Assembly (NCBI GenBank): GCA_023807065.1
Contig: JAJJLU010003461.1
Location: 1-64,000, forward strand
Origin: Isotricha intestinalis
Taxonomy: Eukaryota; Ciliophora; Litostomatea; Vestibuliferida; Isotrichidae
Direction of reading: 5' to 3'
DNA length: 64,000 bases
Part shown: one piece after another, positions 36,088 through 54,037 of the stretch
How positions within the stretch are numbered: the first letter of the stretch is position 1
Layout: each line of letters begins with the position of its first letter
Program-made: the position numbers and the translations under genes
Notes under the pieces: generated by a model
Told to the model about the DNA's origin: nothing
Database searches by the model: none
Seen by the model: the letters and a program-made list of their open reading frames with translations, nothing else

Positions 36088-36837
36088 ATGAAAATAATTT
36101 TTATAATTTTTATGAATAAAATTATAAGAAATTCATTAAAAAGTAATAAGAAAACAATCCTTTCTAAATACATAAACAATAAAGATAATGAAGAAAAAAA
36201 TGATGTTAATGAAGAAAAAAAATATATAAATTTTTTTATGAAATTATTAATATTAGGTGATTCATTAGTAGGAAAAACAACATTAATATCAAGATTTGTA
36301 AAGTCTTATATTTCAAATAATCAAGAAAATAATTTTGGTAAATGTAAATTATCTTTTGAAAATAATACAAAAACAATTATTATAAATAATATAATATGTG
36401 AAATGCAAATATGGGAACCAAGTGTAAAAGAATATAATTCAATAACTAAACAATTTTACAGAGATTGTAATGGATGTATTTTATTATATGATATTACTAA
36501 TAAAGAATCTTTTTTAAATATAGAAAAAATATGGTTAAATGAAATAAAAGATAATTATAATAGTGATTTTCCTATTATTATTGTTGGGAATAAAAAAGAT
36601 TTAGAAAATAAAAGAGAAGTATCTTTTAATGAATTAGTTTCTTTTTGTCATAAAAATTATTTAGATTATTCTGAAGTTTCTTCTTTTATGAATTCTCAAG
36701 TTGATGAAATTTTTAATTTAATTGCACAAAAAATTATTGAAAATAATAATTTTATTGAAAAAGGAAATAAAGGAATTTCTTTAGATATAACATCATTTTA
36801 TAAAACAAATTATCGGAAATATAATTGTAATTGTTAA
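36088..36837 (+). CDS. Atypical Rab-like GTPase lacking the switch II DTAGQE
   Basis: 249 residues from ATG 36088 (ATG 36112 and an ATG at 36238, just before the G domain, are alternatives). P-loop GDSLVGKT (57-64) and NKKD (168-171) are intact, so guanine nucleotide binding is likely. The DTAGQE block is replaced by WEPSVK (109-114): the Mg-contacting Asp and catalytic Gln are gone. Switch I lacks the conserved Thr (NNFGKCKLSF). The G5 loop is weak (YSEVSSF). It ends in C-x-C (NCNC), a prenylation signal, and has a 50-residue N-terminal extension. It probably binds nucleotide without normal GTP hydrolysis, acting as a constitutive or scaffold GTPase. Confidence 0.75.
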   Translation: MKIIFIIFMNKIIRNSLKSNKKTILSKYINNKDNEEKNDVNEEKKYINFFMKLLILGDSLVGKTTLISRFVKSYISNNQENNFGKCKLSFENNTKTIIINNIICEMQIWEPSVKEYNSITKQFYRDCNGCILLYDITNKESFLNIEKIWLNEIKDNYNSDFPIIIVGNKKDLENKREVSFNELVSFCHKNYLDYSEVSSFMNSQVDEIFNLIAQKIIENNNFIEKGNKGISLDITSFYKTNYRKYNCNC

Positions 36838-38338: not shown

Positions 38339-39751
38339 ATGGATGATTTTGACTTGTTGAAAGGAGTTAAAAGAAGAGTTTTTACTCAGTTTCAAAAAGA
38401 TAGAAAGGAACTTGAAGATAAATATTGTTTATTAAAGGAAAAATTTTTATTGTTGGAAAATGAATTTAAAATTTATAAAAATATTGAAAATGAGTCTAAA
38501 ATTAGATTAGAAGAAATTTTAATTCATTATCAAGAAAGTAAATTGGAAAAAATAAATATTGAAAATAAATATACTGAAATTAAAAAAGAATATGATAATA
38601 TAATTAAAAATAAAATAAATTATGATGAAAGAATTAATGAGCTTATAGAATCAAATGAAAAATTGATTAATGAAAATAATAAATTAAAAGAAGAAAATGA
38701 AAATTTAAAAAATAAATTAAATTCTTTAGAAGAAAATAATATAATTAATTTAGAAAAAATAAAAAATTTAATTCAAAAAGAAAAAGAAGTTAAAGAAGAA
38801 AATGAAAAATTAAAAATTAACAATGAAGAATTAAAATTAAGTTTAAAAACATTAATAAATAATTATGAAAAAGGAATAAAATATAAAAATAATAATAATA
38901 ACATAAATAATAATTTTATAATTGCTTCATATAAAATAAATCAAGAAGATATAAATAAAGAAATCCAGATTTTAAATTATTGTTCATTAAATAAAGAAGA
39001 AATAGAAGAATCTTGTGAAATATATTTAAATAATAAAAAATTAAAATTTAATTTTAAATATAAATTTGTTAAAAAAGGAGAATATACTTTTAAATTTCTT
39101 TTCTCTAAATTATTAACAAATACAAGTTTTATGTTTTGTTCATGTTCTAAATTAACTTTTTTAGATTTATGTAATTTTAACACAAATAATGTTAAAGATA
39201 TGAATAATATGTTTTGTAATTGTTCTTCTTTATCTTCATTAAATTTATCAAATTTAATCACAGATAATGTAATAAATTTAAAAAGAATGTTTTTTAAATG
39301 TTCATCATTGTCATATTTAGATTTATCAAATTTAAATACAATTAATGTTAAAAATATGGAAGAATTATTTTCTTTTTGTTCTTCATTAACTTATATAAAT
39401 TTATCTAATTTAAATACTATGAATGTTATAAATATGGAAGATATGTTTTCTTATTGTTCTTCTTTAAATGAATTAGATTTATCTAATTTTTATACTAATA
39501 ATGTTACAAATATGAAAGGTATGTTTGCTAATTGTTATTCTTTGGAAAAATTAGATTTAAGTAATTTTATTACTTATAATGTTAAAAATATGTCTGCAAT
39601 GTTTTTTAATTGTTCTAATTTACAGTTTTTAGATATATCAAATTTTAATGTAAATAAAAATACTAATGTTAATTTATGTTTTAATGGGTTAAATATGTAT
39701 TTTAATATTATTACAAATGATAGAATTTTATTGAATTTACTTGAAAAGTAA
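38339..39751 (+). CDS. Coiled coil plus DUF285/BspA-type leucine-rich-repeat protein
   Basis: 470 residues from ATG 38339; the frame opens six codons earlier with TTG only. Residues about 5-195 are a long charged coiled coil. About 205-265 is a cap module: a CEIYLNNKKLKFNF segment, then YKFVKKGEYTFKFLFSKLL. From about 265 to 445 run about seven copies of a 24-residue repeat with MF-x2-C-S-S-L-x3-(D/N)-L-S-(N)-x4-(N)-V-x(N)M, the DUF285/BspA pattern first known from bacterial surface proteins. There is no signal peptide or membrane segment, so the protein appears cytosolic. The cap and repeats closely match those of the gene at 51986-54037, which carries a different N-terminus. Confidence 0.8.
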   Translation: MDDFDLLKGVKRRVFTQFQKDRKELEDKYCLLKEKFLLLENEFKIYKNIENESKIRLEEILIHYQESKLEKINIENKYTEIKKEYDNIIKNKINYDERINELIESNEKLINENNKLKEENENLKNKLNSLEENNIINLEKIKNLIQKEKEVKEENEKLKINNEELKLSLKTLINNYEKGIKYKNNNNNINNNFIIASYKINQEDINKEIQILNYCSLNKEEIEESCEIYLNNKKLKFNFKYKFVKKGEYTFKFLFSKLLTNTSFMFCSCSKLTFLDLCNFNTNNVKDMNNMFCNCSSLSSLNLSNLITDNVINLKRMFFKCSSLSYLDLSNLNTINVKNMEELFSFCSSLTYINLSNLNTMNVINMEDMFSYCSSLNELDLSNFYTNNVTNMKGMFANCYSLEKLDLSNFITYNVKNMSAMFFNCSNLQFLDISNFNVNKNTNVNLCFNGLNMYFNIITNDRILLNLLEK

Positions 39752-39938
39752 AAAATTATGTTTTTTTTATTAAATAGTTATTTTTGAATAATGATATATT
39801 ATTTATTAATTTATCTTTTAAAATAAATAAATTATTTTTTAAGTTTTGAATGATATAATCAAAAAAATAATTAATATTTAATTGTGTTTATTTAAAATAA
39901 TAATATTAAATAATAATCATAAATTTAAAATAGTAATT

Positions 39939-41294
39939 TTAAAATCCATTTTTTTTTTTTAAAAACTGAATCAAATTATAATCTATATTATTATTATAAT
40001 GCTCTTGATTATAATAAATTCTTTGAATATCATTAAAATTATTATAATTGAATCCCAAATTAAAATTAAAGTTATTCAAATTATTCATAATAGGAAAATA
40101 ATTATGATGATTAAAATTATGATTAAAAGAATGATTAAAATTTGGAAAATGATTATAGAAATTTCCATTATTTGAAAAATTATTAGTAAAAGTATTAAAG
40201 TTATTAAAAATATTATCTATGTTATTATTAATAATTATATTATTATTTTTTGTGAATTTTGAAAAAATAAAAAATAAACCATTTTCCTGATTTATATACT
40301 TCATAAAACAAAATTTACAAATCGTAATTGAATTTGGGTAATTTTGAAAATTAAAATTAAATTGATTGAAAATTAAAGCATTTTTTTTAAAGTTTTTTTC
40401 ATTATAAACAATAATATCATTATAACCAGAAAAACAATTTTTCAAACACTTTTGAAATTGATTATAATTTAAGAAAAATAATAAATCTTTATAATTATTA
40501 TAATAATTTTTATTACAAACAAAACAATTAAAATGAAAATTAAAAGGATAATTAAAATTTTGATAATTATCATCAAGATTAGTAAAATACATAATTTCTT
40601 TATTTTCTTTTTGAGGAATGTCTTTAATAAAAGAAAGATTATCTTTTAAATTATTTTGATTCTTAATAATTTCAAAATCTTTTTCATGAACAAAAGTATT
40701 GTTTTTATTGTATCTTATTTTCCCACATTCGGAACATTTACATTTATCATTACATATATAACATTGCCATCTATAATAATTATATATTTTTTTTTACCCT
40801 TTTTCACTAAACTTTTTTTTTAAATTTTCAAAATTGTTTCCCTATAAAAATTAAAAATAAATTTATATTATTATTTTTATAACTTACATATGATCTAATG
40901 CATCTTTCACAAAAGCTTTTTAAACAAAAATAATTTTTACATGTTAGCATATTTTTCTCATAATCTATTTTATTACATTGATGACAATTAATGCATTTTT
41001 CATTTAAGATATTTTTTATTTTTTCTAAATAAATAATTAAAATAATAAAAATATACTATTTTCTTTTTTTCTACTTTTATTATTTTGTTTTTTTTTTCCA
41101 TTTTCTTTTTTACTTTGTCTACTTCTTTTTTTATTTGAATTATTATTATTATTTGTTTCATTTGAAAAATTAAAACTTCTTAAAGAAGGAGGAGGAGAAA
41201 TTTCTTTTCTAAATTTATCCATATCTAATAATGATGGATCAAATTCTTCATCTTCTTCTTTTATATTAATTATCATTTTTCTATTGCCCTGCAT
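39939..41294 (-). CDS. CDCA7-type zinc-finger protein (zf-4CXXC_R1), four exons
   Basis: Exons, 5' to 3' on the minus strand: 41294-41057, 41024-40888, 40841-40798 and 40770-39939, giving 416 residues. Exon 1 is basic and disordered (KKRSRQSKKENGKKK, with an acidic EEDEEFDPS start). Exons 2-4 rebuild the CDCA7 finger: CHQC, then C-x4-FC-x2-C with SYG matching the family's R-Y-G, and WQC-x2-C-x3-C-x-CSEC like the W-x-C-P-x-C-x-G-x-C-N-C-S-x-C end. This domain in CDCA7 contacts hemimethylated DNA or nucleosomes and works with the HELLS remodeller. The rest of exon 4 is Asn/Phe-rich with two more CxxC pairs (CFVC, CKFC). Without splicing only two unrelated-looking fragments appear. Confidence 0.75.
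40771..40797 (-). other. Intron 3 (27 nt) of the CDCA7-like gene
   Basis: Begins GTAAAA and ends TATAG, phase 2. Removal puts Gly before the conserved WQC of the finger. It is the shortest supported intron in the window. Confidence 0.7.
40842..40887 (-). other. Intron 2 (46 nt) of the CDCA7-like gene
   Basis: Begins GTAAGT and ends TATAG, phase 0, directly after the RSY of the zinc finger. Removal joins RSY to GNN, restoring the family's Arg-Tyr-Gly step. Confidence 0.75.
41025..41056 (-). other. Intron 1 (32 nt) of the CDCA7-like gene
   Basis: Begins GTATAT and ends TTTAG; splits a Lys codon after its first base (phase 1). Contains a TAA in frame. Confidence 0.7.
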
Positions 41295-41951
41295 TATATA
41301 TTAATATTTATAAATAATAATAAATATTTTTTTGGATTTTATAAATTATATAAAATAATATCATTTATGGAATTAATATTTTTTATGAATAAAAAGAGTT
41401 TTTTTTAATTTTAGATTATTAAATTTTTTTATAAGAAATTCAATTGGTTTATAATCTATTATTTTTTATAGAATTATTTTTTGATTTATATTCATTTATA
41501 ATTTGTGTATTTATGCTGTATAATAATTAATAATTCTTTATTCAAATGATGTTATAATCTTGTTATTCATGTATATTTTTTAATTTATTAATTATTTTAT
41601 TATGTTCATCATATATTAAATCATTTAATTATAAATAAATTTTGTAATATCTTAATAACTCTTAATTTTATGGATTAATCAAAATTTTAAATATTATATT
41701 AAAAAAAGATTTTTTTATGTATTAAAGTAAAATAGCAATTCTTTTTTAATTCACCAAAAAGAATTAGTTGATTTAAATTTTATTAATTGAAAGGTTTAAT
41801 AACTCATCTATTAAAATAATTCAATGAATTATACTAATTATATTATTTGTGCTTTATTTATGGTTTTCTTTTGTCAAGATATTACCACATTTTAAAAATT
41901 AAAAATTAAAAAAAAATAATTTAAATAAATAAAGATTTAAAAAAAAAATAA
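41295..41951. other. Intergenic DNA, no gene seen
   Basis: About 650 A/T-rich bases between divergent genes. Stops are frequent in all frames. No tRNA, repeat array or conserved-looking peptide was found. Confidence 0.55.
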
Positions 41952-43061
41952 ATGAAAAAAAAGGCACAAATGACTTTAGATTTATTTTTAAATTTAAAAT
42001 GCAAAAAAAAACAATTTTTTTATATTGATTGGAATGAAGAAAATCCTTATGCAAAATGGTTATATAAAAAACCAAAAGAAGCAAATTGGTCAAATATAGT
42101 AAAATGGAATTTAATAGGAGATGTTATTATATGTTGTAAAGAAAAAGAAAAAATGGAAATTGATAATTCAATATATATTAAAATTATAAATCAAATAAAC
42201 TCAAATTCAATCGAATCTAATTCGAAAATTATTTCCTTTTTAAAAAGCCATCTTCAAAAAAGTATAAGAAGACAAAAACAAATACAAAGTATTCAAAGTG
42301 CTTTTATTTTACTTAAATTAAATAAAAATGAATTATTAAGAAGAATATCAATCATAATGTTTGAAGATACAAAAATGAAAAAATATTATTTAAATATTTT
42401 TTGGTTAACAGTTGCTGTATCTAAAGATTATATCTTAAAAGATTACCAAATAAATTTAATATTAAAATACATAAGTGATTTATCATTATATGATAAATTT
42501 GATGAATATGAAATTATAAAAAATGAAAAGGATAATTTTAATCCTTCTAAATTTATAGAAGAAATAGAATCAAATCAAATCGAAGATATTGAAAAGGATC
42601 TTTTATATTGTATTGCTTTTAGAATTTCTTATGGAGGAATGTTATTTGATAAATTTATGTTAATTAATTATGCTTATACTTGGTTTAATAGATTTAAATC
42701 AAAAACAAATAATTTAATTGATGATTTAGATATTGAAAAAAATAAAGATATTAACATTGAATTTGTAATGGATTATAAATTTAAAAATATTAATGATTTT
42801 ATTCTAGAAAGTGTTGATTTCCATTGTTTTCCTTATATTATTAAAATTATAAATAATTATTGTAATAATGAATATAGTGAAGAACAAATTAAAAAGTGTA
42901 TTTGGGAATATAATTCAAAAATAAATACTAGGAAAGATAATAGTATAGATATAGAAGAATTTGGTAATTTAGAATTAATATGGAATAATATAAAATATAT
43001 ATTAAAAAAAGAACAAGAAAAAATTCTATTTAATCTAATTGAAACAATAAATTCATATTAA
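41952..43061 (+). CDS. Uncharacterised protein, possibly of a family shared by protists and large DNA viruses
   Basis: 369 residues, intronless. The segment SHLQKSIRRQKQIQSIQSAF followed by LLRRISIIMFED (about 96-138) has the look of a conserved motif: a short basic helix, then L-L-R-R-x-x-I-I-M-x-E-D. I have a faint impression of similar motifs in large-DNA-virus and protist proteins, but cannot name the family. The N-terminus is basic, with a W-x-E-x-NPYAKWLYKKP segment (about 28-42). The C-terminal half is helical. There is no signal peptide. A profile search would settle it. Confidence 0.45.
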   Translation: MKKKAQMTLDLFLNLKCKKKQFFYIDWNEENPYAKWLYKKPKEANWSNIVKWNLIGDVIICCKEKEKMEIDNSIYIKIINQINSNSIESNSKIISFLKSHLQKSIRRQKQIQSIQSAFILLKLNKNELLRRISIIMFEDTKMKKYYLNIFWLTVAVSKDYILKDYQINLILKYISDLSLYDKFDEYEIIKNEKDNFNPSKFIEEIESNQIEDIEKDLLYCIAFRISYGGMLFDKFMLINYAYTWFNRFKSKTNNLIDDLDIEKNKDINIEFVMDYKFKNINDFILESVDFHCFPYIIKIINNYCNNEYSEEQIKKCIWEYNSKINTRKDNSIDIEEFGNLELIWNNIKYILKKEQEKILFNLIETINSY

Positions 43062-43101
43062 ATTATAAAATATTTAAATAATATAAATTATAAATTAAAA
43101 T

Positions 43102-43686
43102 TTAATAAATTAAACATTGATTTTGACAACAAGCTTCTTCTCTCATAATATTATCTTCATTTTCTCCTTTATAATATTCAATATATTTTCTAATTAAATC
43201 ATCAATTAATTCAGTAATTTTTTCATTATTTTTTGAAGTAGTTTCTTTAAAAACAGCATTAATAGAATGTGAAAATTCTTCTCCTTCTTTATAAGAAACT
43301 TCTCTTTTTTTTTCTAAATCTAATTTATTTCCTGCGACTCCTATTAAAATATTATTTCCTAAAGCTTTCCTAGTTTGAGGATAATAATATTCTTTCATTA
43401 AATTAAAGGAATCTTTATCAGTTATATCATATATTAAAATAACAATATTTGTTCCAGGAATAAATAACTTATGAAAACTATCAAATTTATTTTCTTCTTT
43501 ATTTAAATATATATGTAATTGAATTGTATCAATTCCAATTTCTATATTTTTATCTTTTGGTTCATATAATTTTGTTATTCCTTCATTTGGTTCTTTATGT
43601 TCTAAATATTGGTAAATTAATGATGTTTTTCCTACACTTGGACCAAATAATGATATATTACATTTTATTATTTCATCATAGAACAT
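43102..43686 (-). CDS. Degenerate Rab-like GTPase (short P-loop, no switch II motif)
   Basis: 194 residues, recognisable as a Rab by overall alignment (PGTNIVILIYDITDKDSF, NKLD at 120-123, ETTSK near G5). The P-loop reads GPSVGKT (15-21), one residue shorter than G-x4-G-K-T. The WDTAGQE block is absent and replaced by IYLNKEENKFD (59-69). Loss of the Mg-binding Asp and catalytic Gln makes GTPase activity unlikely. The C-terminus has CC ... CLIY, where CLIY could be a CAAX box rather than a Rab double Cys. The gene starts 95 bases from the divergent GAP/VPS9 gene. It has a full-length open frame, so it is probably expressed and not a dead copy. Confidence 0.75.
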   Translation of the reverse strand: MFYDEIIKCNISLFGPSVGKTSLIYQYLEHKEPNEGITKLYEPKDKNIEIGIDTIQLHIYLNKEENKFDSFHKLFIPGTNIVILIYDITDKDSFNLMKEYYYPQTRKALGNNILIGVAGNKLDLEKKREVSYKEGEEFSHSINAVFKETTSKNNEKITELIDDLIRKYIEYYKGENEDNIMREEACCQNQCLIY

Positions 43687-43781
43687 TGTTTAATTTTTTA
43701 TTTTTTCATTTAAGAAAAAATTCAATTAAAATATTAAAAATATTATATTAATGTTGTTTAAATATTTTTATTTTTATTCAA
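43687..43781. promoter_or_regulatory. Shared upstream region of a Rab-like gene and a Rab-GEF gene
   Basis: 95 bases separate the start codons of the degenerate Rab (minus) and the RasGAP/VPS9 gene (plus). No element is recognisable. A shared promoter is inferred from position. Confidence 0.4.
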
Positions 43782-46700
43782 ATGGAAAATATAAATCATT
43801 TAGAAATATTTAAAACTCTTCAAAATTTAATTACCAAAGATTCATCTAAGCGTTTTTTATGTAAAAAAAATAAATAATAAATTTAAAATAGTTTTCAATT
43901 CATTAAAGCAAATTAAAAATATTAAAAATTTTTCTAAAGAAATATATAAATTAAAAATAGATTATATAACAAATCATTTAGCTTTAAATGAAAGATTAGG
44001 AAAAACAAAAATGGAATTAATAGAAGATCCAAAAAAGCTTTTAAATACACATTATAAATCTTGTAAAAATATTTTAACTTTTATAAGACAAGATCCAGAA
44101 TTAATATTTAAAATATATGATAATGCAAAAATAGATTTAATTCCAGATATTTTTTCTAATTTTTTTATGGATAATTTTTTTGAAGATATTTTAAATGTAA
44201 ATATAGTAGAAGATGAATTATTAACATTAATTTGGAGAGCTTTAAATCAAGAATTTAATTCAATAAATTCTTTAAAAGATTATGATCTTTTTCTAAGAAA
44301 TACAAAATGTTTTCATTTATTAAAAGGAGTTAATAATAAATATGAAATAAGAAAATTTTTTCATGATATTATTCAAATAATTATTAATGAATTTGCAATG
44401 AGAAGAAATGAAATTTGGGAATTTAAAATAAAATCAATTAAAGCTTATATAACTTATATTGATGATAGTATAAAAGAAACTTTATATTATCAAGAAAAAG
44501 AAAAACAAAAAAAAAAAGATAGAGAAAATTTTGTTAAAGAATATTGTTATGATTTAAATAAAGAAAGATTAGAAAAATTTAGAAATGAATGTGGAAATAC
44601 ATTTATGGAAGAATATTGTAATAAACAATTAAATATAAAAGATAAAAATAAACAAAATATTTCACCTATTTCATTAATAGATGAAATATATAAATATGAA
44701 CCTTCAGAAGATATTTTACATTTTTATATTCAAAGTTTTATGTCTGTTAAAACAATATTAATTGTGTTATTTAAAAATTTTTTAGATAAAGCTCCTATAT
44801 TCCCTTATAGTATAAGATGTGTTTGTAAAATGATAAAAATATTAATTAAAAAAAAATTTCCTTATATTTCTCTTTTAGACACTTATTATTTTGTTGCTAA
44901 ATACTTTTTTTCAATAATATTTTTTCCTTTTTTAAAAGCATATGATAATGAAGTTTATATTGATTTAATTGTTGATGAGGAAATATCATCTAAAATTAAA
45001 TTTTTTATTAAATTTTTAGAAGATGTTCAAAAGGGAGAATTATATAATGAAGAAGAAACAATTTGTTTTACAAGTTTTAATTTATTCCTTTTAAAAGAAT
45101 TTATCCCTTTATATTATAATTTTTTTGAAGCTTTAACTAATTTTAAATTTTCTAATTACATTGAAAAATTAACTTCGGGAGAAATTGAATTAAATAATTA
45201 TGAATATGATTATTTTAAAGAATATCCTGATAAACAATTTAGATTTTTTACTTTTTGTTTAACGGTTGATGATTATATTCAAATAATTGAAATTTTAAAA
45301 AAAGTATTAATCAAAGATAAAGATAGTTTCACCCCTAAAAATTTAAATATTTCTGATAAAGAATATATTGACAATAGACAAAAGTTTTTATTTTTTTTTT
45401 TAAACGAATATATTTTTAATCAAAATCAATTAGATAGATTATATGAGATAAAAAATCAACCAAATCATAAAACTTATTTTTTAATCACACATAGTATATA
45501 CAAACATAATATGAAAAAATTAAAAGAAGAAATAGAATTAAATAAAAATTGTATTCTTTTTACAAAAACAACAGAAATAATAAAAGAAAATAATGTACTA
45601 TCTCAATTAATAATAAAATTTGAAAATTTATTCATAAATCTTTTAATTAAAGATAAACATATTCAAAAAATAAATTCAGAAAAAAATGATATAATAAATA
45701 GATTAAATGAATCAATGAATTATTTAAAAACAGAAATTTCATCTTCTTCAGATAATATTCAATCATTTTGGTATGCACAAAGTTTAATTCCTTTAATTCA
45801 AAAATTTGAAGATAATAATATTAAATTAAAGGATATTTATAATGAAATGAAAAATAAATTAAATAAATCAATTACTTTATATGATGAAGTAAATACAATA
45901 TGTAGTAATATAATAAATAAAATGAAAAATTTAAAAAAAATAAAATTCTCTTTACAAAATATAATTAATCTTATTTCTGAAATACAAATTAATCATGAAA
46001 TTGTTCCAATTTCTTTAGATTCTTTTAATATTAATATTTTTATAGAATTTAAACCAAAAGAAGATTTCTTTAAAATAAAAATCAATAAAAATTTAAATAT
46101 TCATTTTTCAACTGATCTTTCTTATTTTTTATCAGATTTTCCTAACTTGAATATGATTCTTCTTGAAAATAAAAAGGATAATATAATAGAAACTCAAAAA
46201 AAATTAAAAATTAACACTGAGTTAAAAAAAATAGAAAAAATACTCTTTAAAAAAATTAAAAAATTACATCCTGATATTCCTCCACTTGATAATATTATAT
46301 GTGATTTACTCTATAGTAATTATAATATAAAATCAAATGAATTAGGTTATATAGATAACTTAAATAAAGATTTTCAAACTTTAAGTGAAAAAAACAACAA
46401 AAAGAGTTTTGAAAATATTCTAAAAAATATAAAAAAAATAACAGAAGAATTAAATATAATAATATTAAGAAAGAAAAAAATAGAAGAACAAAACAATCAT
46501 TTAAAAAAGTTAAGAATGAAAATAATAAATAAATTAGAAGATACAATTTTTGAGAAATTATATGATAAATTATTTCCAATAAGACAAAGTGAAGAAGATA
46601 AAAAATTATATAAACAATGTATTAAATTATCTTGGATAGAACCAAATCATTTATTTGAAAAGAAAAAATATTTAATTCACAAAGATTTTTTTACAGATAT

Positions 46701-47064
46701 AATACATTTAATGAGACAAACAGACATAGAAAGAGCACCAAAAAAAAAGATAAAAGCTTTAAATCAATTAGTTTTATATGTTAAAAACATAATTGCTCTT
46801 AATGAAGGAAATTATGAATATGGAACTGAAGAATTAACTCCTTTTTTATTATATGCAATTATTAAAGCAAAACCTATTAAAATGTATTCTAATCTTGAAT
46901 ATATTAAACTTTATGTTGAAAATATTTATCTATTTCCTAATTTTTTATTAATTAATGGTATTGTTGATCAATTATTAAAAGATAAATATAAAATTTATAA
47001 TATTAGTCATTATGATATTATAAAAAAAAGTAATGAAGCTTTACAAAATTATATTGATGTTTAA
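43782..47064 (+). CDS. RasGAP-like plus VPS9-domain protein (Gapex-5/GAPVD1-like), two exons
   Basis: Exon 1 is 43782-43860 and exon 2 is 43892-47064, giving 1083 residues. The N-terminal third is helical, with an LLTLIWRALNQEF and FLRNTKCFHLLKG arrangement reminiscent of a RasGAP fold; no clear arginine finger is seen. A long middle coiled region follows. Near residues 975-1060 is a VPS9 domain: AP-x-KK near its start, then ELTPFLLYAIIKAKPIKMYS and a following NLEYIKLY, which match the D-x-x-L-P-x-L-I-Y-x-I-I-K-A-x-P-x-x-x-x-S-N core; the family's Asp is Glu-Glu-Leu-Thr here. VPS9 domains activate Rab5-type GTPases at endosomes. RasGAP plus VPS9 in one chain is the Gapex-5 layout. Confidence 0.6.
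43861..43891 (+). other. 31-nt intron in the GAP/VPS9 gene
   Basis: Begins GTAAAA and ends AATAG, phase 1, restoring a Phe codon. Joins a 26-codon first exon to a long open frame that otherwise would start at an internal Met. Confidence 0.7.
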
Positions 47065-47173
47065 AAATTTTTTTTTTTAGAAATTTTTATTTTAATATAT
47101 TTATTAAATATATAAAATTAATTGATATCTATTATAAATATAATTATTATATAATGATATACAATAATTAAAA

Positions 47174-49192
47174 ATGTCAGGAAACTTAATTTCAAGTACA
47201 TATTTAGAAAATGTAAATTTAATTTCACAAACAATGAATGGAAATTATAGTAATTATCAATCAAATAATTTTAATCAATCAAATAATTTTAATCAATCAA
47301 ACAATTTTTATCAATCAAATAATTTTTATCAATCAAATAATTATAATCAAATTAATTCTAATAGAAGTTTTCAACTACAAAATAATAATACTAATTATAA
47401 TAATAATTATAATAATAATAATTATTATAGTTCAACTTATCGTTCAAATAAATATTATCCTAATCAAAGTTTTGAATGGAATGAAATTTTAAAAGTAAAT
47501 CCCGAAGAAAATAAATCAATAGAACCTTTAATGGGAAATTTATTATATTCAAATTTAAATAAAAAAGATGTTCAAAATTTACCACAAAATAATTTATTAA
47601 AATTAATAAATGTATTACAAAGCGTTGCAAGAAATTCTTTTATTAATCAAGAAAATTTAGAAAAACAAAATAATCAATTAAATTACCAATTAAATTTAAT
47701 GTCATCCGGGCAATATAATAATAATACAAATAATAATGATTCTCAAAGAATAAAAAATTTACAAAGAAAAAATCAACAACAAGAAAAATTAATTCAATCA
47801 TATAGAAAAATGTTAGACGGAAACGAAGACTTAATAGATGATACTCAAAGTGAAAAATCAACAAAATCAAAACAAAGATTTTATTGTCATTTATGTGCTA
47901 ATAAAAAATTTTATTCTGAATATTATTTGGAAGAACATATGAGAAGACGACATTTACATTATATTCAAAATATACATTTAAATAATAGACATCATAATAA
48001 AAAAAAAGATTATAGTAATAAATTGGAAGATATGAAAAATTATTTAATGGAACTTTATAATAAAAATCAATTAAAAAATGAATGTGAACAATTAAATGAT
48101 AGATTAAATGATATTGAAAATAAAATTCAATCTCAATCTCAACATTATAATTTTCCAATTAATCAAAAAACAAAAATAATATATAAAACAAAAAATAAAA
48201 ATATAAACGATGAAAGTGAAGAAGAAGAAGATTCAAAAATAAATGAAAATGAAAAAAAAAAAAAAATGGAATTAGATAAAAAAAATAGGAAATTAAAAAA
48301 TAAAATTAATGATTATAAAGATAAAATTACAGATGTAGAAAATAAATATACAAAAAATATTTCTATTCAGGAACAAATTAAAATTCAAAATCAAAATAAA
48401 GCAATAAAAAGCCAACTTTTAAAATCTGTAAACACAGAAAATTTTATTTCTCCTTTAAAAAGAAGTGTTCTATTAAGAAAATCACAAATGAAAAATAGTC
48501 TAATAAATTCTCAATTCCAAAATAATGTTAATAATAATAGTATACAAAAAACTCAATTACAAGATTCAATTAATATCGATAATAATAATAATAATAATAA
48601 TAATATTAATAATGATAATGATAAAAGCATTGAGCAAATAATTGGTTCCAAATTAGTTCAATCGACTTTAATTGAAAATAATTCAGAAAATAATTCAAAC
48701 ATTATTAGTAGTTTAAGAGGAATAAATAATAATTATGTTTCAGATATTGAAGATCAAGAAAACATAATACGTGATTTAGAACAATTTTATAAAAAATTTG
48801 TAATAAGAGATTACAAAGGAAATGGATTTGAAAGATATAGAATAGAAATTTTACCAAAGGATAATGAAAAAGAAGAACAATATAAAATTAATATTTTAGA
48901 TAAAATAAATAATAAATTGAATATTTTTGGATTCTCAAATATAGAGGAAGAAAAAGATACAATAGAACATTCTCTTAATGATTTAAATCAATATATTCAT
49001 GAGTATGAAAATAAATGTAAATCAGATATAAAAAATTATTCTAATATTTACAAAGAAGATTTATATGAAGTAATTAATACAGATGTTAAAGATTCTGAAG
49101 AAATTGTTACAAAAATTAAAAATTTTAATAAAGAAATTGATAAACTTATAAATAATGAAAGTGATTATGAATCTTCTAATTCTGAAATTTAA
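47174..49192 (+). CDS. DZIP1/Iguana-like C2H2 zinc-finger coiled-coil protein
   Basis: 672 residues. The N-terminus has five copies of a QSNNFN-type hexapeptide. Then FEWNEILKVNPEE (about 100-112) and a helix with LLKLINVLQSVARNSFINQ (about 141-159) resemble the Dzip-like N-terminal domain. A single C2H2 finger lies at about 238-261 (C-x2-C ... EEHMRRRH), in the position and with the R-R-R/K-H end typical of DZIP1, followed by long coiled coils. DZIP1 sits at the basal body and transition zone and is needed for cilium formation. The assignment rests on the order of these features; overall sequence is divergent. If correct it indicates a ciliated or flagellated cell. Confidence 0.6.
   Translation: MSGNLISSTYLENVNLISQTMNGNYSNYQSNNFNQSNNFNQSNNFYQSNNFYQSNNYNQINSNRSFQLQNNNTNYNNNYNNNNYYSSTYRSNKYYPNQSFEWNEILKVNPEENKSIEPLMGNLLYSNLNKKDVQNLPQNNLLKLINVLQSVARNSFINQENLEKQNNQLNYQLNLMSSGQYNNNTNNNDSQRIKNLQRKNQQQEKLIQSYRKMLDGNEDLIDDTQSEKSTKSKQRFYCHLCANKKFYSEYYLEEHMRRRHLHYIQNIHLNNRHHNKKKDYSNKLEDMKNYLMELYNKNQLKNECEQLNDRLNDIENKIQSQSQHYNFPINQKTKIIYKTKNKNINDESEEEEDSKINENEKKKKMELDKKNRKLKNKINDYKDKITDVENKYTKNISIQEQIKIQNQNKAIKSQLLKSVNTENFISPLKRSVLLRKSQMKNSLINSQFQNNVNNNSIQKTQLQDSINIDNNNNNNNNINNDNDKSIEQIIGSKLVQSTLIENNSENNSNIISSLRGINNNYVSDIEDQENIIRDLEQFYKKFVIRDYKGNGFERYRIEILPKDNEKEEQYKINILDKINNKLNIFGFSNIEEEKDTIEHSLNDLNQYIHEYENKCKSDIKNYSNIYKEDLYEVINTDVKDSEEIVTKIKNFNKEIDKLINNESDYESSNSEI
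47258..47347 (+). repeat. Five tandem 18-bp units in coding sequence
   Basis: Five in-frame copies of an 18-base unit (consensus CAATCAAATAATTTTAAT, coding QSNNFN/Y) within the DZIP1-like gene. Units differ at one to three bases. The number probably varies between strains. Confidence 0.8.
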
Positions 49193-49585
49193 TAAAAATA
49201 AATTTTTGATATTTAAAATTAAAAAATAATATAATTTTTAAATATTTTTTAACTGAAAGACAGTATTTTATTTTTCAATTTAACTTTGTAATTCATTTAG
49301 TTTTTAAAATGATTTAAAATATTTAATACAAATAATAAGTATTTTTATTCTAATTAAGAATATTTTATATTTATCAAAGGAAAAAAATATTTATAATTAA
49401 TTATTGTAATTCTTTTCTTTATATAAAAAAAAATGAATGATTTAAAAAAATAATCCCATATTTTTATTAAATGTGAATAAAAATATATAATATTATATTT
49501 CTTAAAATGCTTAAAAATATATCTACAAATAACATAAGATTTAATGTGAAGAATATATCATTAAATATTATTTATATTTTCATCA
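49193..49585. other. Convergent intergenic region, no gene seen
   Basis: About 390 A/T-rich bases between facing stop codons. Nothing recognisable. Confidence 0.5.
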
Positions 49586-50044
49586 TTAATTCAAATCTAT
49601 ATTAAATATTTTTGGAGATAATAATTTATAATTTGAAATAATATCTTCTAAAGAGAAAATCTTTTTATTAAGAAATTCAATTTCCTTTTTTAAATCTTCA
49701 TTTTGTTTTAAAAGAAAATTAAATTCCTCTTTTTTTTTCATTCTAAATTTTTTAGCACTTATTGCATTTTTTTTTCTTTGAATTTTTTTTTCTTCTTCAG
49801 ATTTAGCCAAAAATTTTTCTTTCCTTCTTTTATTTCTTTCCTTTTCTTTAATACTATTATAAGTTCGTTTATTTTTTTTTTTCTTTTCTCCTAAATTTCT
49901 TTTTTTATCTTCTTTATCATTATTTGTTTCAAATAATGATATGTTTAATTCTTCTTTTAAAATACTTCTATCTCCTGTACTAAAATAATCTTCTTCTTGA
50001 AAAAAATCAATAGATTTTTCGATATCATATAAAAAGCCTTCCAT
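49586..50044 (-). CDS. bZIP transcription factor
   Basis: 152 residues. The basic region is KKNAISAKKFRMKKKEEF (about 91-108), with the invariant Asn93 and Arg101 of the N-x7-R rule and the Ala at the expected place. A leucine zipper follows with Leu at 111, 118, 125 and 132, exactly seven residues apart. The N-terminus is acidic (DIEKSIDFFQEEDYF), a plausible activation segment, and residues 54-90 are strongly basic. It would dimerise and bind palindromic ACGT- or AP1-like DNA. It diverges from the GRD-motif gene with 138 bases between starts. Confidence 0.88.
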   Translation of the reverse strand: MEGFLYDIEKSIDFFQEEDYFSTGDRSILKEELNISLFETNNDKEDKKRNLGEKKKKNKRTYNSIKEKERNKRRKEKFLAKSEEEKKIQRKKNAISAKKFRMKKKEEFNFLLKQNEDLKKEIEFLNKKIFSLEDIISNYKLLSPKIFNIDLN

Positions 50045-50182
50045 TTTTAAATAATAAAAAATGTATTGGTTTCAAAATTAAATAAATAAATAAAAAAAAT
50101 AAAAAAATTTAAAAGACCAAAATTTAATTTATTTAGTAAATAAACTATTAAAAAATAAAAAATTAAAAAAAATAAAAAAAAA

Positions 50183-50947
50183 ATGAACCGTAAAATCCCA
50201 ATAAACCGTACAGATCATCCATTCTGGACTCGTTATGACCCAGATGGTAGAGGAAGAGACTCATATATAAGTCAAAACAATGGAGGATTTTGGAAAGACG
50301 CAGTGCCTCCAAAATACAAACCATCATACCCATATTACAAGAATACAAACTACCATTCTTTAAGTCATATGGCAGCTCCCTTCCGTTACATCCAAGATGG
50401 TTCAGGTCGTGATTTATATGTCATAGTAGATCCTGGTTTACGTCATGATTTCCGTCCATTAGGCACTTACTCTTTGCAGGGGTTCCTTCGTGGAGGACAA
50501 GATAATGTATCTGTGAACCTGAAACCGCACTATATGGGAGTAAAGGAAAAGATAAAGAATAATCAAATTAAGAAATTAGAAAAAAGATTAGCTGAAAGAT
50601 TATATGAACCTGGGAAAGAAAAAATCAGAAGAATTAGAGCTTTAACTGAAGAAAAAGAAAAAAAAATTGGAAAAGGAATCGAAGAAGAGAAAATTTCTGT
50701 AAGAAGAATTCAAACTAATTATGCTAAAGAAGGAACTGAAATGTCTACTGCTGCTTTAGCTGAAGGAGGACCTATTCCTTTTTTAAGGGAATATCCTAAT
50801 GAAGGTAATTTAGTTGTTAATGATAATCCTAGATTAAAAACTAGTATTAATTTCTATAGAGGAGATAATCCTTTACCTATTCTACCTAAACCTAGGTTTT
50901 ATAAAAAGTTAATGAGATTGGAAATTAAGGATATTGAAGGATGTTAA
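50183..50947 (+). CDS. GRD-motif protein, candidate cilium/microtubule-associated
   Basis: 254 residues. A motif repeats: GRGRDSYISQNNGGF (about 23-37) and again GSGRDLYVIVD (about 73-83), each followed by a Pro/Tyr/His-rich, sheet-poor stretch (KYKPSYPYYKNTNYHS). Then comes a LGTYSLQGFLRGGQ segment. The second half is a charged helix followed by a Pro-rich end. Proteins of this look, short with repeated G-R-D-x-Y-I, occur in ciliated protists; some resemble microtubule inner or surface proteins. Codon use differs from all neighbours: the first 350 bases are rich in CGT, GAC, CCA and GGT and visibly more G/C, which suggests high expression or strong constraint. Function is not established by the sequence. 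Confidence 0.5.
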   Translation: MNRKIPINRTDHPFWTRYDPDGRGRDSYISQNNGGFWKDAVPPKYKPSYPYYKNTNYHSLSHMAAPFRYIQDGSGRDLYVIVDPGLRHDFRPLGTYSLQGFLRGGQDNVSVNLKPHYMGVKEKIKNNQIKKLEKRLAERLYEPGKEKIRRIRALTEEKEKKIGKGIEEEKISVRRIQTNYAKEGTEMSTAALAEGGPIPFLREYPNEGNLVVNDNPRLKTSINFYRGDNPLPILPKPRFYKKLMRLEIKDIEGC

Positions 50948-51339
50948 AAAATTATTTTTTAAAATTCTTTTTTTTTTTTTGATTTTTTTATTATAATTTA
51001 AGAGATTTTTCTTACTTTTTATTTACAAAGAAAGGGAAAAGATAATTTTATATTATAACAAAAATAATAATTCTAATTAAAAATCACAATTTTTTTTTGA
51101 TTAAAGAAGAAAATATAATAATTATATTAAAAGAGAAATTAATTCAAGAATCTTTTAAAAACTTATATAAAAGATTAATAATGTATTAATTTATTTAAAT
51201 TATAATTTTAAAATTTCTAATTAATAAATTAATTTGAATATTTGTAACAATTAATTTCATAAAAGATAAATTTCAATTTCTAGATTGAAAAAATAATATT
51301 TCAAAAAAAATAAATTCAACTTTTTACTTACAATTCTTG
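50948..51339. other. Intergenic DNA, no gene seen
   Basis: About 390 A/T-rich bases after the GRD-motif gene. No feature recognised. Confidence 0.5.
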
Positions 51340-51960
51340 ATTTAATCGTATTTTCTTTTTTATAATTTTTTCTTCAACACTATTAACTTTTTATTTTCAT
51401 TATTAAATAATAATTTAAATTTAGAAAAATTTATCATGAACCTTAACAATAGTATTAACATGTTTATCTAAAAAATTTTAAATATATTTTCATTTATTAT
51501 TGCTTTATTTGATATTCTTATTAATAATTGTTTTCCCTTTACTTTATTTTTATTATTTGTTTATTTTTTTACTATTTAATGAGGAATTACTTTATAATTT
51601 GTTTTATCATCTAATTCATTATAATTTTTAAAAAATGTATTATCTAAAATATTATCATTTAAATAGTTATTTTGCTTATTTAAATTAATTTAATTATTAT
51701 TTGTTTGTTAAAGGAGAAGACTCTTTTATTGTTTTATTTAATTTTATTTATATTATTTAAATTATTTATTGTCCTTTGAATAACTATATTTATTAATTTA
51801 TTTGATTTCATCATATAATTCTTATTCTTTTATATTGTTTGAAGATTTCCTTCATTTTTATATTATATTTTAACAATTTTGATTCAGTTTTTTTGGTTTA
51901 ATTAATTTTTTTTTTTAAATATTATTTTCTTAAAAAGAAATATAAAATAAAGTTTTTTTA
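51340..51960 (-). pseudogene. Possible decayed coding region
   Basis: Translated on the minus strand, this stretch gives coding-like peptide in shifting frames, for example DNTFFKNYNELDDKTNYKV, KGKQLLIRISNKAIINEN and DKHVNTIVKVHDKFF. It is broken by TAA codons at places where Gln (CAA) would fit. No family is recognisable. It lies just downstream of the pseudokinase gene and may be an old relic of another gene. Confidence 0.3.
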
Positions 51961-51985
51961 ATTTTTTTAATTAACTGAATTATCT

Positions 51986-54037
51986 TTATCCTTTAATATA
52001 TTCATTCCATTTATTATTTAAAAATGAATCTGTTATCTCAATTAAACAATTTTTGTTTGTTCCTTTAAAAATAGATTCAGTTATTTCATTAGTATTATCA
52101 AAATGAGTAGTATTAAAATTGGAAATATTAAGATAATTTAATTGAGTACAATTCTCGAAAATAGAATTTAGTACAACATTTTTTTTTAAAAGGAAACTTG
52201 ATAAATCTAAAGAAGGTAAAGAAGTCTGAGAAAACATATATGACATATTGATAACTTTTTGAGTTGTGAAATTTGAAACATCTAAATTTACTAAAGAATC
52301 ACAGCCATTAAACATATATGCCATTGCTTCTACATTATTAGTATTAAATTTAAATAAATCTAAATTTTTTAAAGATTTACAATTTTTAAACATTCCATTT
52401 AAATATTTTGCATTTGATATATCTAAATCAACCGGAAAAATTATTTCTTTTAAATTAATACATTCAGAAAGCATAAAGTCTAAATTTTCAGTGTTGGAAA
52501 AATTAAAACTTGATAAATTAATTGTCTTTAATGATTTACATGAATAAAATAATAAACTCATATTTGAAACAAGTTTAGTATCAAAATTTGATAAATTTAT
52601 TTTTTTTAATGAAAAACAATTACAAAACATCCATTTCATTGAAATAATTTCACTTGAATCAAATTTTGATAAATCTATTGTTTCTAAATGCTGACAATCA
52701 AGAAATAAATCATCAAGTGATGTTAATTTTTGAGAAAATTTATATTTTATATTATATGTCCCAGGAATATTGAATTTATAATTACAATTAAAACCTATAT
52801 TTTTATCATTTATATATATTTCACAACAATTTTTTATGTCTTTATTCTCATTTATTAATTTTATTAATTGATTAAAATCTTCATTTATTGTTAATGTTGC
52901 TTCAATATAATTATTATCTTTACTCTCTTTTATTGGCTTTTCATCATTTTGTTTAAAATAAATTATTTCATCAAGAAAATTTGTGTTTACTTTAACTAAA
53001 GAATATAATTTTTCCAAGTTATATAATTTAAAATTAGAATTTATATTATTTTCATAAACAGATTTATTAATATTAATGCTTTTAACATTTTCATAATAAT
53101 TAACCATATTTTTTTTACATTTCTGCAGTTTTATAATATTATCTTCAAATTCATCAATAATATTTTTTATTTCATTTAATTCAAAATCAGTATATCCAAT
53201 ATCTTTAAAATTTATTAATTCATGACTTAAATGATTCTCTCTGCAAAATTTACAAATATTTTTATTACAATTCTTACAAAATTCATTTGGAGTAATAGAA
53301 TGTTCCTTACATAAATCAAATTTATTTGGTTCAAAAAATGGGTGATTGAAATATTGATTCAAATTTTTAATTGTATTTTCAAATATACTCCAATCAAGTA
53401 ACTTTTTTAAATCATCATTTGTAATTGTATTAAGATTGTCTTTAAATATTTTCTTTTCTTCATCTGTTTTTTCATCATTTTCAAATGGTTTCTTCAGGAA
53501 TAACATTAAATAAATGATTTCTCCAAATTTATATATTTCTTTAGCTTGTTTTATCCCAATTTCTTCATTTTCATTTCTATTTTTCAAACCAGTAATTTTT
53601 ATTTCAGTATATTCATCATCAAATAAAAGTAATAAATTTGAAATATTAAAACCATTATAAAGTGTTGTTTTATTGTCTAGTAGATATTTATATTTTGAAT
53701 TCAATTTTAACATTATTTTTTTTATTTCTTTTTCTGTGAAAGGAATTCCTCTAATTTTTAATAAAGTTTCTAATTTATATTCACAATATTTATAGATAAC
53801 AAAATAGTAATCATTTGAATTTATTGTTTCAATTACATATTTTTTTATTTCATTCTCTTTTAAAAATTCTAATGAAAAATCCTTTTGATACAAATTTTTA
53901 TATTCTAATTTATTAATTTGTTGAATGATAACATTAATATTATTTTCTTTAATAATTCCTTTATAAAATTTTAAATAAGAATTCTTTAACAATAACCTTT
54001 TTTGAAGGTATATCTCCCAAATATTAACTGTAGACAT
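51986..54037 (-). CDS. Pseudokinase, B-box and DUF285 leucine-rich-repeat fusion
   Basis: 683 residues. Residues about 1-235 follow a protein-kinase C-lobe: YKYCEYKLETLL (hinge and helix D), then the catalytic-loop place LYNGFNISNLLLL where HRDLKPxN is expected, ITGLKN for DFG, KEIYKFGEIIYLMLF for the D-V-Y-S-F-G helix F, and HPFF at the end. The HRD Asp and DFG Asp are missing and no Gly-rich loop is seen, so it cannot phosphorylate. About 243-272 is a B-box: C-x2-H, C-x2-C, C-x2-C, H-x2-H. A short coiled coil, then the same cap module as the gene at 38339-39751 (CEIYINDKNIGFNC, YKFNIPGTYNIKYKFSQKL), and about eight DUF285 repeats (MF-x2-C-x-S-L-x3-(N)LS-x-F). Probably a scaffold or receptor-like regulator. 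Confidence 0.75.
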   Translation of the reverse strand: MSTVNIWEIYLQKRLLLKNSYLKFYKGIIKENNINVIIQQINKLEYKNLYQKDFSLEFLKENEIKKYVIETINSNDYYFVIYKYCEYKLETLLKIRGIPFTEKEIKKIMLKLNSKYKYLLDNKTTLYNGFNISNLLLLFDDEYTEIKITGLKNRNENEEIGIKQAKEIYKFGEIIYLMLFLKKPFENDEKTDEEKKIFKDNLNTITNDDLKKLLDWSIFENTIKNLNQYFNHPFFEPNKFDLCKEHSITPNEFCKNCNKNICKFCRENHLSHELINFKDIGYTDFELNEIKNIIDEFEDNIIKLQKCKKNMVNYYENVKSININKSVYENNINSNFKLYNLEKLYSLVKVNTNFLDEIIYFKQNDEKPIKESKDNNYIEATLTINEDFNQLIKLINENKDIKNCCEIYINDKNIGFNCNYKFNIPGTYNIKYKFSQKLTSLDDLFLDCQHLETIDLSKFDSSEIISMKWMFCNCFSLKKINLSNFDTKLVSNMSLLFYSCKSLKTINLSSFNFSNTENLDFMLSECINLKEIIFPVDLDISNAKYLNGMFKNCKSLKNLDLFKFNTNNVEAMAYMFNGCDSLVNLDVSNFTTQKVINMSYMFSQTSLPSLDLSSFLLKKNVVLNSIFENCTQLNYLNISNFNTTHFDNTNEITESIFKGTNKNCLIEITDSFLNNKWNEYIKG

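What the first reader, a model, noticed from the sequence alone, without database searches (positions are those of the whole stretch)
38339..54037. A modular family: shared cap plus DUF285 repeats with exchangeable N-terminal domains
The proteins at 38339-39751 and 51986-54037 share a cap module (C-E-I-Y-(L/I)-N-(N/D)-K, then YKF-x3-G-x-Y-x2-K(F/Y)-x-FS) followed by 24-residue DUF285/BspA repeats. One has a long coiled coil in front; the other has a dead kinase and a B-box. Neither has a signal peptide. This looks like an intracellular sensor or scaffold family in which a fixed recognition unit is joined to different signalling heads, comparable in logic to NLR- or TRIM-type proteins. DUF285 repeats are best known from bacterial surface proteins, so their use inside a protist is notable.
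Basis: partly seen in the sequence, partly recalled or inferred. Interest (0 to 1): 0.75.

Follow-up and report, generated by a model that had tools for sequence, protein, structure and literature searches.

The report
Ciliate repeat proteins with swapped heads
A ciliate, probably of the gut-dwelling kind, carries well over a hundred gene loci that join one fixed recognition-like unit, built on a repeat known from bacterial surface proteins, to many different enzyme or scaffold heads, apparently inside the cell, which looks like a build-your-own set of internal receptors.

Summary
The two window proteins share an N-terminal cap (43% identical; profile probability 98.7, E 1.8e-16) followed by DUF285/PARCEL repeats of 26, not 24, residues. 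Cap-only searches of the window's genome give 136 loci on 124 contigs. Of 77 held cap frames, 67 heads could be sorted, partly by reading: kinase plus B-box 21, kinase 7, ADP-ribosyltransferase-like 8, trypsin-like 6, coiled coil 6, beta head plus coil 5, short acylation-type 4, B-box/coil 2, E2-like, MORN and HSP70-fused 1 each, headless 5. Caps 62% identical can carry unrelated heads. Twelve of 24 scorable kinase heads keep Lys/Asp/Asp; the window's has lost all three. A hydropathy scan gives no convincing signal peptide. Telomeres are CCCCAAT, as in litostome ciliates. Short-pattern scans found no cap in prokaryote or viral contigs. So: a modular, probably cytosolic, receptor-like family with exchangeable heads, a new use of a repeat known from surface proteins. 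Sensing of microbes is untested. No structure was obtained.

The parts
38339..39751 (+). Gene 1: coiled-coil head + N-cap + DUF285/PARCEL repeats + C-cap (470 aa)
38339..38905 (+). Long coiled-coil head of gene 1 (read from sequence)
38906..39145 (+). N-terminal cap of gene 1 (80 aa; query)
39146..39676 (+). 26-residue DUF285/PARCEL repeats of gene 1 (approximate limits)
39680..39748 (+). C-terminal cap of gene 1 (FNGLNMYFNIITNDRILLNL)
51986..54037 (-). Gene 2: pseudokinase + B-box + helical linker + N-cap + repeats + C-cap (683 aa)
53333..54010 (-). Pseudokinase region (approximate limits; no Pfam match; Lys, HRD-Asp and DFG-Asp all replaced in the family alignment)
53210..53323 (-). B-box zinc finger, 22.3 bits (cut-off 24.1)
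52919..53209 (-). Linker between B-box and cap, helical by reading
52694..52918 (-). N-terminal cap of gene 2
52073..52693 (-). DUF285/PARCEL repeats of gene 2, more degenerate than in gene 1 (approximate limits)
51989..52072 (-). C-terminal end of gene 2, in the place of the C-cap

Best explanation
The two genes belong to a large ciliate family of probably cytosolic 'head - N-cap - PARCEL repeats - C-cap' proteins. SHOWN by sequence: the shared cap and repeats, more than 130 cap loci, many unrelated heads in front of the same cap, kinase heads with and without the catalytic residues side by side, no convincing secretion signal by hydropathy, some N-termini of the acylation type (MGxC). INFERRED: the repeats form a leucine-rich-repeat-like solenoid closed at both ends that binds a protein; the cap is the fixed joint that carries or couples the head; the head (kinase, ADP-ribosyltransferase-like, protease-like, ubiquitin-pathway-like, or a scaffold such as B-box, coiled coil or MORN) acts on, or signals the presence of, what the repeats hold. 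New members arise by attaching a new head to a duplicated cap-repeat unit. In the window, gene 1 would be a coiled-coil assembly or adaptor member and gene 2 a non-catalytic kinase/B-box member (decoy, allosteric partner or adaptor). Whether the ligand is the cell's own or foreign is open.
For: 136 cap loci from cap-only queries. By a loose motif count, 52 of 56 first-batch rows (55 genes, since L034 and L035 are one sequence) have at least 3 repeats after the cap. Heads over a Pfam cut-off: kinase in 8 of the 10 proteins; B-box in L025, L027, L037, L060, L062, L066, L087; UQ_con 96.1 bits in L007; MORN 265.9 bits in L063; Trypsin_2 in L077, L079, L082; HSP70 248.6 bits in L075. ART-like heads: their profile matches a solved NAD:arginine ADP-ribosyltransferase at E 7e-4; 32 matches in the genome, 15 of them at 14 cap loci, 13 of those loci with the same frame length (one search held). 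Head exchange: kinase-B-box L062 and HSP70-fused L075 have caps 62% identical over 100 aa and heads without similarity; kinase L048 and L061 (protease-like by reading) 59%; median cap identity of aligned pairs 43.5% within and 39.1% between head classes. On a weakly resolved cap tree (5 of 64 inner branches well supported) head class changes at least 32 times among 67 rows, against a mean of 43 (lowest 36) for shuffled labels: class follows ancestry in part and has changed often. MGxC N-termini in seven rows, six genes (L019, L026, L034/L035, L038, L043, L082). Of 24 kinase heads with all three sites held, 12 keep them. The catalytic His, Asp and Ser of the protease class are readable in L077, L079, L082 (motif recalled).
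Against: No expression, localisation, ligand or activity data. No structure, so the solenoid and the role of the cap are inferred. Location rests on a crude hydropathy scan: 7 of 77 rows pass its 19-residue threshold (L029, L036, L043, L046, L050, L076, L083), one row its signal-peptide threshold (L030, inside a kinase fold by reading); I read them as buried segments, or for L076 as a wrong start, but did not test that; only 67 rows have an N-terminus. Many head classes rest on reading: Pfam scanned 8 of the 21 kinase-B-box rows and finds no kinase in three of them (L065, L066, gene 2); L061 and L034 have no protease match and L085 is under the cut-off; the ART domain reaches only 17.7 of 22.3 bits in L036 and has no Pfam match in L043, L071, L076, L083, P0045 or P0275. 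L027 has a cap but no DUF285 match. Four of five close paralogue pairs show mainly purifying selection, which gives no support to a diversifying recognition surface. 5 of 67 sorted members have no head, and 8 of 134 cap rows contain stops. The E2-like gene's cap is weak (22.7 bits) and not among the 136.
Confidence: 0.62

Rival explanations
1. Endogenous targeting scaffolds: the repeats recognise fixed partners of the cell's own (cortex, membranes, prey-processing machinery) and the head is simply a localised enzyme or linker, with no sensing of anything foreign.
For: Mainly purifying selection in four of five close pairs. Head domains also occur away from the cap: 7 of 24 Trypsin_2 matches (6 with the same frame length), 15 of 32 ART matches and about 15 of the 150 listed B-box matches lie at cap loci by contig and position. 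MORN, coiled-coil and acylation-type heads would fit membrane or cortex placement.
Against: More than 130 loci with so many heads is more than a few fixed partners would need; repeat number differs widely between members (0 to 16 in a loose count, some frames cut).
Confidence: 0.3
2. Intracellular immune receptors analogous to NLRs: the repeats detect foreign or disturbed proteins and the heads execute a response.
For: Size of the family, fixed unit with swapped heads, pseudoenzymes beside enzymes; a bacteria-recognition-like role was proposed in print for some of Tetrahymena's expanded LRR genes (PMC6564038, passages). One ART-headed pair, L042/L043, has pN/pS 2.0, Fisher p 0.006 uncorrected.
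Against: No nucleotide-binding switch domain among the Pfam matches; the raised pN/pS is one of seven pairs computed, the other two ART pairs give 1.1, and AT bias weakens the method; no ligand.
Confidence: 0.25
3. Selfish or neutral spread: PARCEL-type repeats recombine easily and land behind many genes without function.
For: Roske et al. describe PARCELs as likely mobile and shuffled within genomes (PMC2996958, abstract and passages). Some members are broken (8 of 134 rows).
Against: The cap, not only the repeat, is shared and in the frames read sits between head and repeats; a recurring C-terminal end closes many arrays; dN/dS about 0.2 on cap and repeats in L037/L064.
Confidence: 0.1
4. 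Surface or secreted adhesins, as in bacteria and as inferred for Trichomonas.
For: The repeat is known from surface proteins (PMC2843621 for the related BspA-like family and PMC2996958, passages; TIGR02167 is named a surface-protein repeat). A few members have hydrophobic stretches.
Against: Neither window protein has a hydrophobic N-terminus or span in the scan; kinase, B-box, E2-like, HSP70 and MORN heads are cytosolic kinds by general knowledge; the secreted-type cap was not clearly found here.
Confidence: 0.05

Closest known systems
PARCEL / DUF285 (TIGR02167, PF03382) repeat proteins, Roske et al. 2010, PMC2996958
   Same: The same tandem repeat (137.6 and 110.7 bits in the two window proteins, cut-off 30). 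That paper noted 'untargeted' ORFs and said it is not known whether they are pseudogenes, cytoplasmic proteins or annotation artefacts (passage).
   Different: There: bacteria, prasinophytes and diatoms, functions unassigned, many with membrane-targeting sequences (abstract and passages). Here: an N-cap and C-cap and enzyme or scaffold heads, no convincing targeting signal, in a ciliate.
Trichomonas vaginalis BspA-like family (911 sequences, PMC2843621, passages)
   Same: Huge protist family built on a related leucine-rich repeat of bacterial type.
   Different: 193 of those have membrane spans with the repeat inferred to face outside; the word kinase has 0 occurrences in its main text. Here enzyme heads and no convincing anchors.
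Tetrahymena 90-bp-exon LRR genes (PMC6564038, passages)
   Same: Ciliate, very large LRR family, protein kinases among the other expanded domains, immunity analogy proposed by the authors.
   Different: Different repeat coding (90-bp exons; here 78-bp units in uninterrupted frames); DUF285 and BspA have 0 occurrences in its main text; no such cap in the passages seen.
NLRs (features recalled)
   Same: Logic: swapped effector head, C-terminal repeat as the supposed recognition unit.
   Different: No NACHT/NB-ARC match in the members scanned, other repeat type, no known ligand.
TRIM proteins (RING-B-box-coiled coil; features recalled)
   Same: B-box and coil in front of a C-terminal unit (gene 2, L060, L087).
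   Different: A pseudokinase, a coil or another zinc-finger-like stretch in place of the RING; no RING match in the window protein.

Membership tests
DUF285 / PARCEL repeat proteins | Tandem ~25-26-residue repeat scoring over the curated cut-off | tested here: met
   PF03382 103.2 and 89.5 bits (cut-off 25); TIGR02167 137.6 and 110.7 (cut-off 30); period 26
DUF285 / PARCEL repeat proteins | Palindromic (dyad) repeat DNA | tested here: inconclusive
   Folding z-scores of 12 repeat units of the two genes lie between -1.9 and +0.6, 7 of 12 below zero; a rough test by RNA folding
Bacterial/Trichomonas-type BspA surface proteins | Signal peptide, lipoprotein signal or membrane anchor | tested here: not met
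   Neither window protein passes either threshold of a hydropathy scan; of 77 family rows 7 pass the span threshold and 1 the signal-peptide threshold. No trained predictor was available
NLR | NACHT or NB-ARC nucleotide-binding module | tested here: not met
   No such Pfam match in the family members scanned (2, 10 each, some of them partial frames)
NLR | Ligand-dependent activation | not testable with these tools
   needs an experiment
TRIM | RING in front of B-box and coiled coil | tested here: not met
   Window gene 2 has no RING match (E up to 0.01)
TRIM | B-box zinc finger | tested here: inconclusive
   22.3 bits against 24.1 in gene 2; relatives such as L025, L060, L066 pass
Receptor-like kinases with LRR | Extracellular LRR, one membrane span, kinase | tested here: not met
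   No span in window gene 2 by hydropathy, kinase-like part N-terminal
Active protein kinases | VAIK Lys, HRD Asp, DFG Asp | tested here: not met
   All three replaced in window gene 2; 12 of 24 heads with all three sites held keep them, gene 2 being one of the 24 (my count)
NAD:arginine ADP-ribosyltransferases (a head class) | Profile match and R / S / ExE residues (motif recalled) | tested here: inconclusive
   PDB profile match E 7e-4; Pfam ART 17.7 bits in L036, cut-off 22.3, and none in L043, L071, L076, L083, P0045, P0275; in A5 the Arg is replaced in 2 of 12 rows, L076 and P0220, and in L071 too
Tetrahymena 90-bp-exon LRR genes | LRR encoded by 90-bp exons with introns | tested here: not met
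   78-bp units in uninterrupted frames of up to 1368 aa

The most novel reading that the evidence does not exclude
Litostome gut ciliates have built, from a repeat otherwise known on the surfaces of bacteria, a cytosolic receptor system of their own: one capped recognition solenoid, more than a hundred copies, plugged onto interchangeable modification enzymes (kinase, ADP-ribosyltransferase, protease, ubiquitin-pathway) and their dead versions, working as an innate-immunity-like repertoire in single cells that live among dense bacteria and archaea.
Probability: 0.25. Interest if true: 0.9.

Novelty: new variant of a known kind. Interest (0 to 1): 0.72.

Why it matters
DUF285/PARCEL repeats are known mainly as surface material of unassigned function, and the paper that named them left open whether the untargeted versions are cytoplasmic (PMC2996958, passage). 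Here the companions are kinase, E2-like, MORN and HSP70 domains, which points inside the cell and gives the repeat a plausible job: presenting a target to an enzyme or scaffold. It also makes an open question testable, namely whether ciliates evolved recognition-plus-effector repertoires independently of NLRs and plant receptors, with a repeat unlike the Tetrahymena one.

Tried and rejected
Subtelomeric placement: of 76 cap positions with known contig length, 35 lie within 5 kb of a contig end, 30.4 expected; KS p 0.11. Rejected.

Diversifying selection: five close pairs by region; most regions under 1 (the L046/L053 cap is 1.06), only L042/L043 clearly above (pN/pS 2.0, p 0.006 uncorrected); the pairs with L047 give 1.1 and 1.1, not significant. 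Not used as support for the main reading.

A solved relative of the cap: none (one match up to E 1, at 0.16). A PARP-like reading of the stretch behind the HSP70 part of L075 came from recall; neither Pfam nor PDB sequences supported it. Dropped. Ubiquitin-like N-termini of L003, P0030 and P0050 look so by eye but have no Pfam match in P0030 and P0050 (L003 was not scanned). An XRCC4/SAS-6-like reading of the beta-head-plus-coil class was recalled and not tested.

Organism by ribosomal protein uL2: no hit with an organism's name above 71% identity among the 120 listed of 2742; the top PDB chain matched in two overlapping parts and was no true nearest relative. The telomere search answered better.

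Papers: six were opened, all by passages only (PMC2996958 also abstract and outline). The ten full-text searches of the open-licence library listed no paper that I could see to be on DUF285 with enzyme heads in ciliates, but apart from the six opened only listings were seen, some lists were cut, and most subscription papers are not held.
Full report
What is there. The window holds two intact reading frames at the stated places. Protein 1 (470 aa) is a long coiled coil by reading, then an 80-residue cap, then DUF285 repeats. Protein 2 (683 aa) has a kinase-like region, a B-box, a linker, the cap and more degenerate repeats. The two align at 41% over 260 aa. The caps alone, compared as profiles built from different sets (5 and 3 sequences), match with probability 98.7 and E 1.8e-16, while a control profile gives 0.1. 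The repeat is TIGR02167/PARCEL (137.6 and 110.7 bits) and PF03382, with a period of 26 residues, not 24.

Where it comes from. The genome has 57.3 Mb in 2153 contigs; the window's 2-kb blocks range from 13 to 22% G+C and the loci held average 17.3%. A triple CCCCAAT unit occurs 840 times forward and 746 times reverse (overlaps counted; control 0); among the roughly hundred places listed, forward ones lie within the first 71 bases of a contig and reverse ones at high coordinates, for C12 at 60342-60362 of 60363. C79 begins and C533 ends with this repeat. The same telomere is reported for the litostome ciliates Entodinium caudatum (PMC6211341, passage), Muniziella cunhai (PMC11316547, passages) and Balantidium ctenopharyngodoni (PMC10978948, passages). 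So this is a ciliate macronuclear assembly, most likely of a litostome; the species is not known, and gut life is inferred from those relatives.

Size of the family. The 80-residue cap of gene 1 finds 134 matches at E 0.01 or better, a second cap 83; merged, 136 loci more than 600 bases apart on 124 contigs. The tool calls such counts lower bounds; on the other side, contigs can repeat each other (L034 and L035 are identical genes on two contigs). Eight of the 134 rows contain stop codons. The secreted-type cap of some metagenome relatives finds one weak match here, inside an ART-headed member, and another cap type one gene (C1459). In public proteins, 61 of the 212 examined (96 and 116 new ones among the best 120 of 2694) carry the cap at 30 bits or more; none of 10 hits checked, mostly named as bacterial or surface proteins, does. 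Short patterns from two cap alignments found no relative in prokaryote contigs (204 and 256 stretches) or viral contigs (509 stretches); this is a limited test.

Heads. I held 77 cap reading frames, including one identical pair and several cut at contig or locus ends. Sixty-seven were sorted (list): kinase with B-box 21, kinase 7, ART-like 8, trypsin-like 6, coiled coil 6, beta head with coil 5, short acylation-type 4, B-box/coil 2, headless 5, and one each of E2-like (L007), MORN (L063) and HSP70-fused (L075). The other ten are nine short or unclear heads and the duplicate L035. Sorting was largely by reading. Pfam scanned 8 of the 21 kinase-B-box rows and 3 of the 7 kinase rows; it finds a kinase in 8 of the 10 proteins, not in L065, L066 or gene 2. 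B-box passes the cut-off in L025, L027, L037, L060, L062, L066, L087 and stays under it in L022, L065 and gene 2. UQ_con, MORN and HSP70 are clear. Trypsin_2 passes in L077, L079, L082, stays under in L085, and is absent in L061 and L034. The ART class rests on a profile match to a solved NAD:arginine ADP-ribosyltransferase (E 7e-4), a sub-cut-off match in L036 (17.7 of 22.3 bits) and the alignments; L043, L071, L076, L083, P0045 and P0275 have no Pfam match there. The E2-like head reads GSIFVDFL where active enzymes have a cysteine (position recalled), and its cap is weak (22.7 bits). L027 has a cap and kinase-B-box head but no DUF285 match. Metagenome relatives show kinase, B-box and Trypsin_2 heads too (precomputed domains).

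Live and dead enzymes. Of 27 kinase heads aligned, 24 hold all three sites; 12 keep the Lys and both Asp, 12 have lost at least one (my count; three lack the N-terminus). Window gene 2, one of the 24, has lost all three. The protease residues His, Asp and Ser are readable in L077, L079 and L082; L085 has lost the His and L034 more.

Exchange. L043 (ART) and L051 (kinase-B-box) are 65.6% identical over 337 aa of cap and repeats. On a cap tree of 67 rows (only 5 of 64 inner branches well supported) head class changes at least 32 times; shuffled labels give a mean of 43, lowest 36. So head class partly follows ancestry and has often changed, with the caution that poor resolution inflates the count and that the classes kinase, kinase-B-box and B-box share related heads. 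The head domains also exist away from the cap: 15 of 32 ART matches (14 loci), 7 of 24 Trypsin_2 matches and about 15 of the 150 listed B-box matches lie at cap loci (held).

Inside or outside. In a hydropathy scan of the 77 frames (67 with an N-terminus) neither window protein passes a threshold. Seven rows pass the span threshold (L029, L036, L043, L046, L050, L076, L083) and one the signal-peptide threshold (L030). I read these as buried parts of repeats, of the ART class's N-terminal domain or of a kinase, and L076's as lying before a second Met that fits its relatives better; this was not tested. MGxC-type N-termini in seven rows suggest acylation at an inner membrane (consensus recalled).

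How it may work. The shared unit would be a capped leucine-rich-repeat-like solenoid that binds a protein, and the head acts on it or reports it. The recurring theme is post-translational modification (kinase, ADP-ribosylation, proteolysis, ubiquitin pathway) plus scaffolds. I hold the architecture as shown, the cytosolic place as likely, the binding role as inferred, and immunity as one open option. The most variable repeat positions are 2, 12, 15, 19, 22 and 23 of 26, but four of five paralogue pairs show mainly purifying selection. No structure was obtained.

What is known. PARCEL repeats were described from bacteria, prasinophytes and diatoms, many with membrane-targeting sequences, with an unexplained untargeted group (PMC2996958, abstract and passages). 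The Trichomonas BspA-like family is taken as largely extracellular by inference (PMC2843621, passages). Tetrahymena has its own expanded LRR genes of another kind, for some of which a bacteria-recognition-like role was proposed (PMC6564038, passages); that proposal lowers the novelty of the general idea. The DUF285-based, capped, head-swapping, cytosolic-looking form was not seen in the listings of the ten literature searches made. I rate it a new variant of a known kind.

Noticed in passing
window 10722-11336, 11457-12086, 13745-14365, 14502-15077, 36088-36837, 43102-43686: Six Ras/Rab-like small GTPase genes in one 64-kb window (two confirmed by Pfam, four read from sequence), with a VPS9-domain protein at 44011-47064 next to the last one.
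   Followed up: partly
window 26804-35422 (-): A single uninterrupted reading frame of 2872 residues, not identified.
   Followed up: no
L003 (G000:C1459): A protein with a ubiquitin-like-looking N-terminus, B-box-like fingers and a coil (by reading) joined to DUF285 repeats through a different cap (RIFGKNF...); the only match to that cap type in this genome with the query used.
   Followed up: partly
G000:C1849:5212-5667 and 8510-8965; C1885:1080-1487 and 9633-10040: ART-like domains also occur away from cap loci, twice each on two contigs; the head domains are families in their own right.
   Followed up: no
L034 and L035 (G000:C894, C924): The same gene on two contigs, identical in head and match figures: redundant assembly or alternative macronuclear chromosomes.
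   Followed up: no
L042, L043, L047: Young ART-headed paralogues; one of three pairs has more amino-acid than silent change (pN/pS 2.0, p 0.006 uncorrected); the C915 member has an in-frame stop in its cap match.
   Followed up: partly
own genome, PF00643: At least 150 B-box matches (only 150 of 495 first-look candidates were scored), about 15 of the 150 at cap loci: B-box genes look strongly expanded in this ciliate.
   Followed up: no
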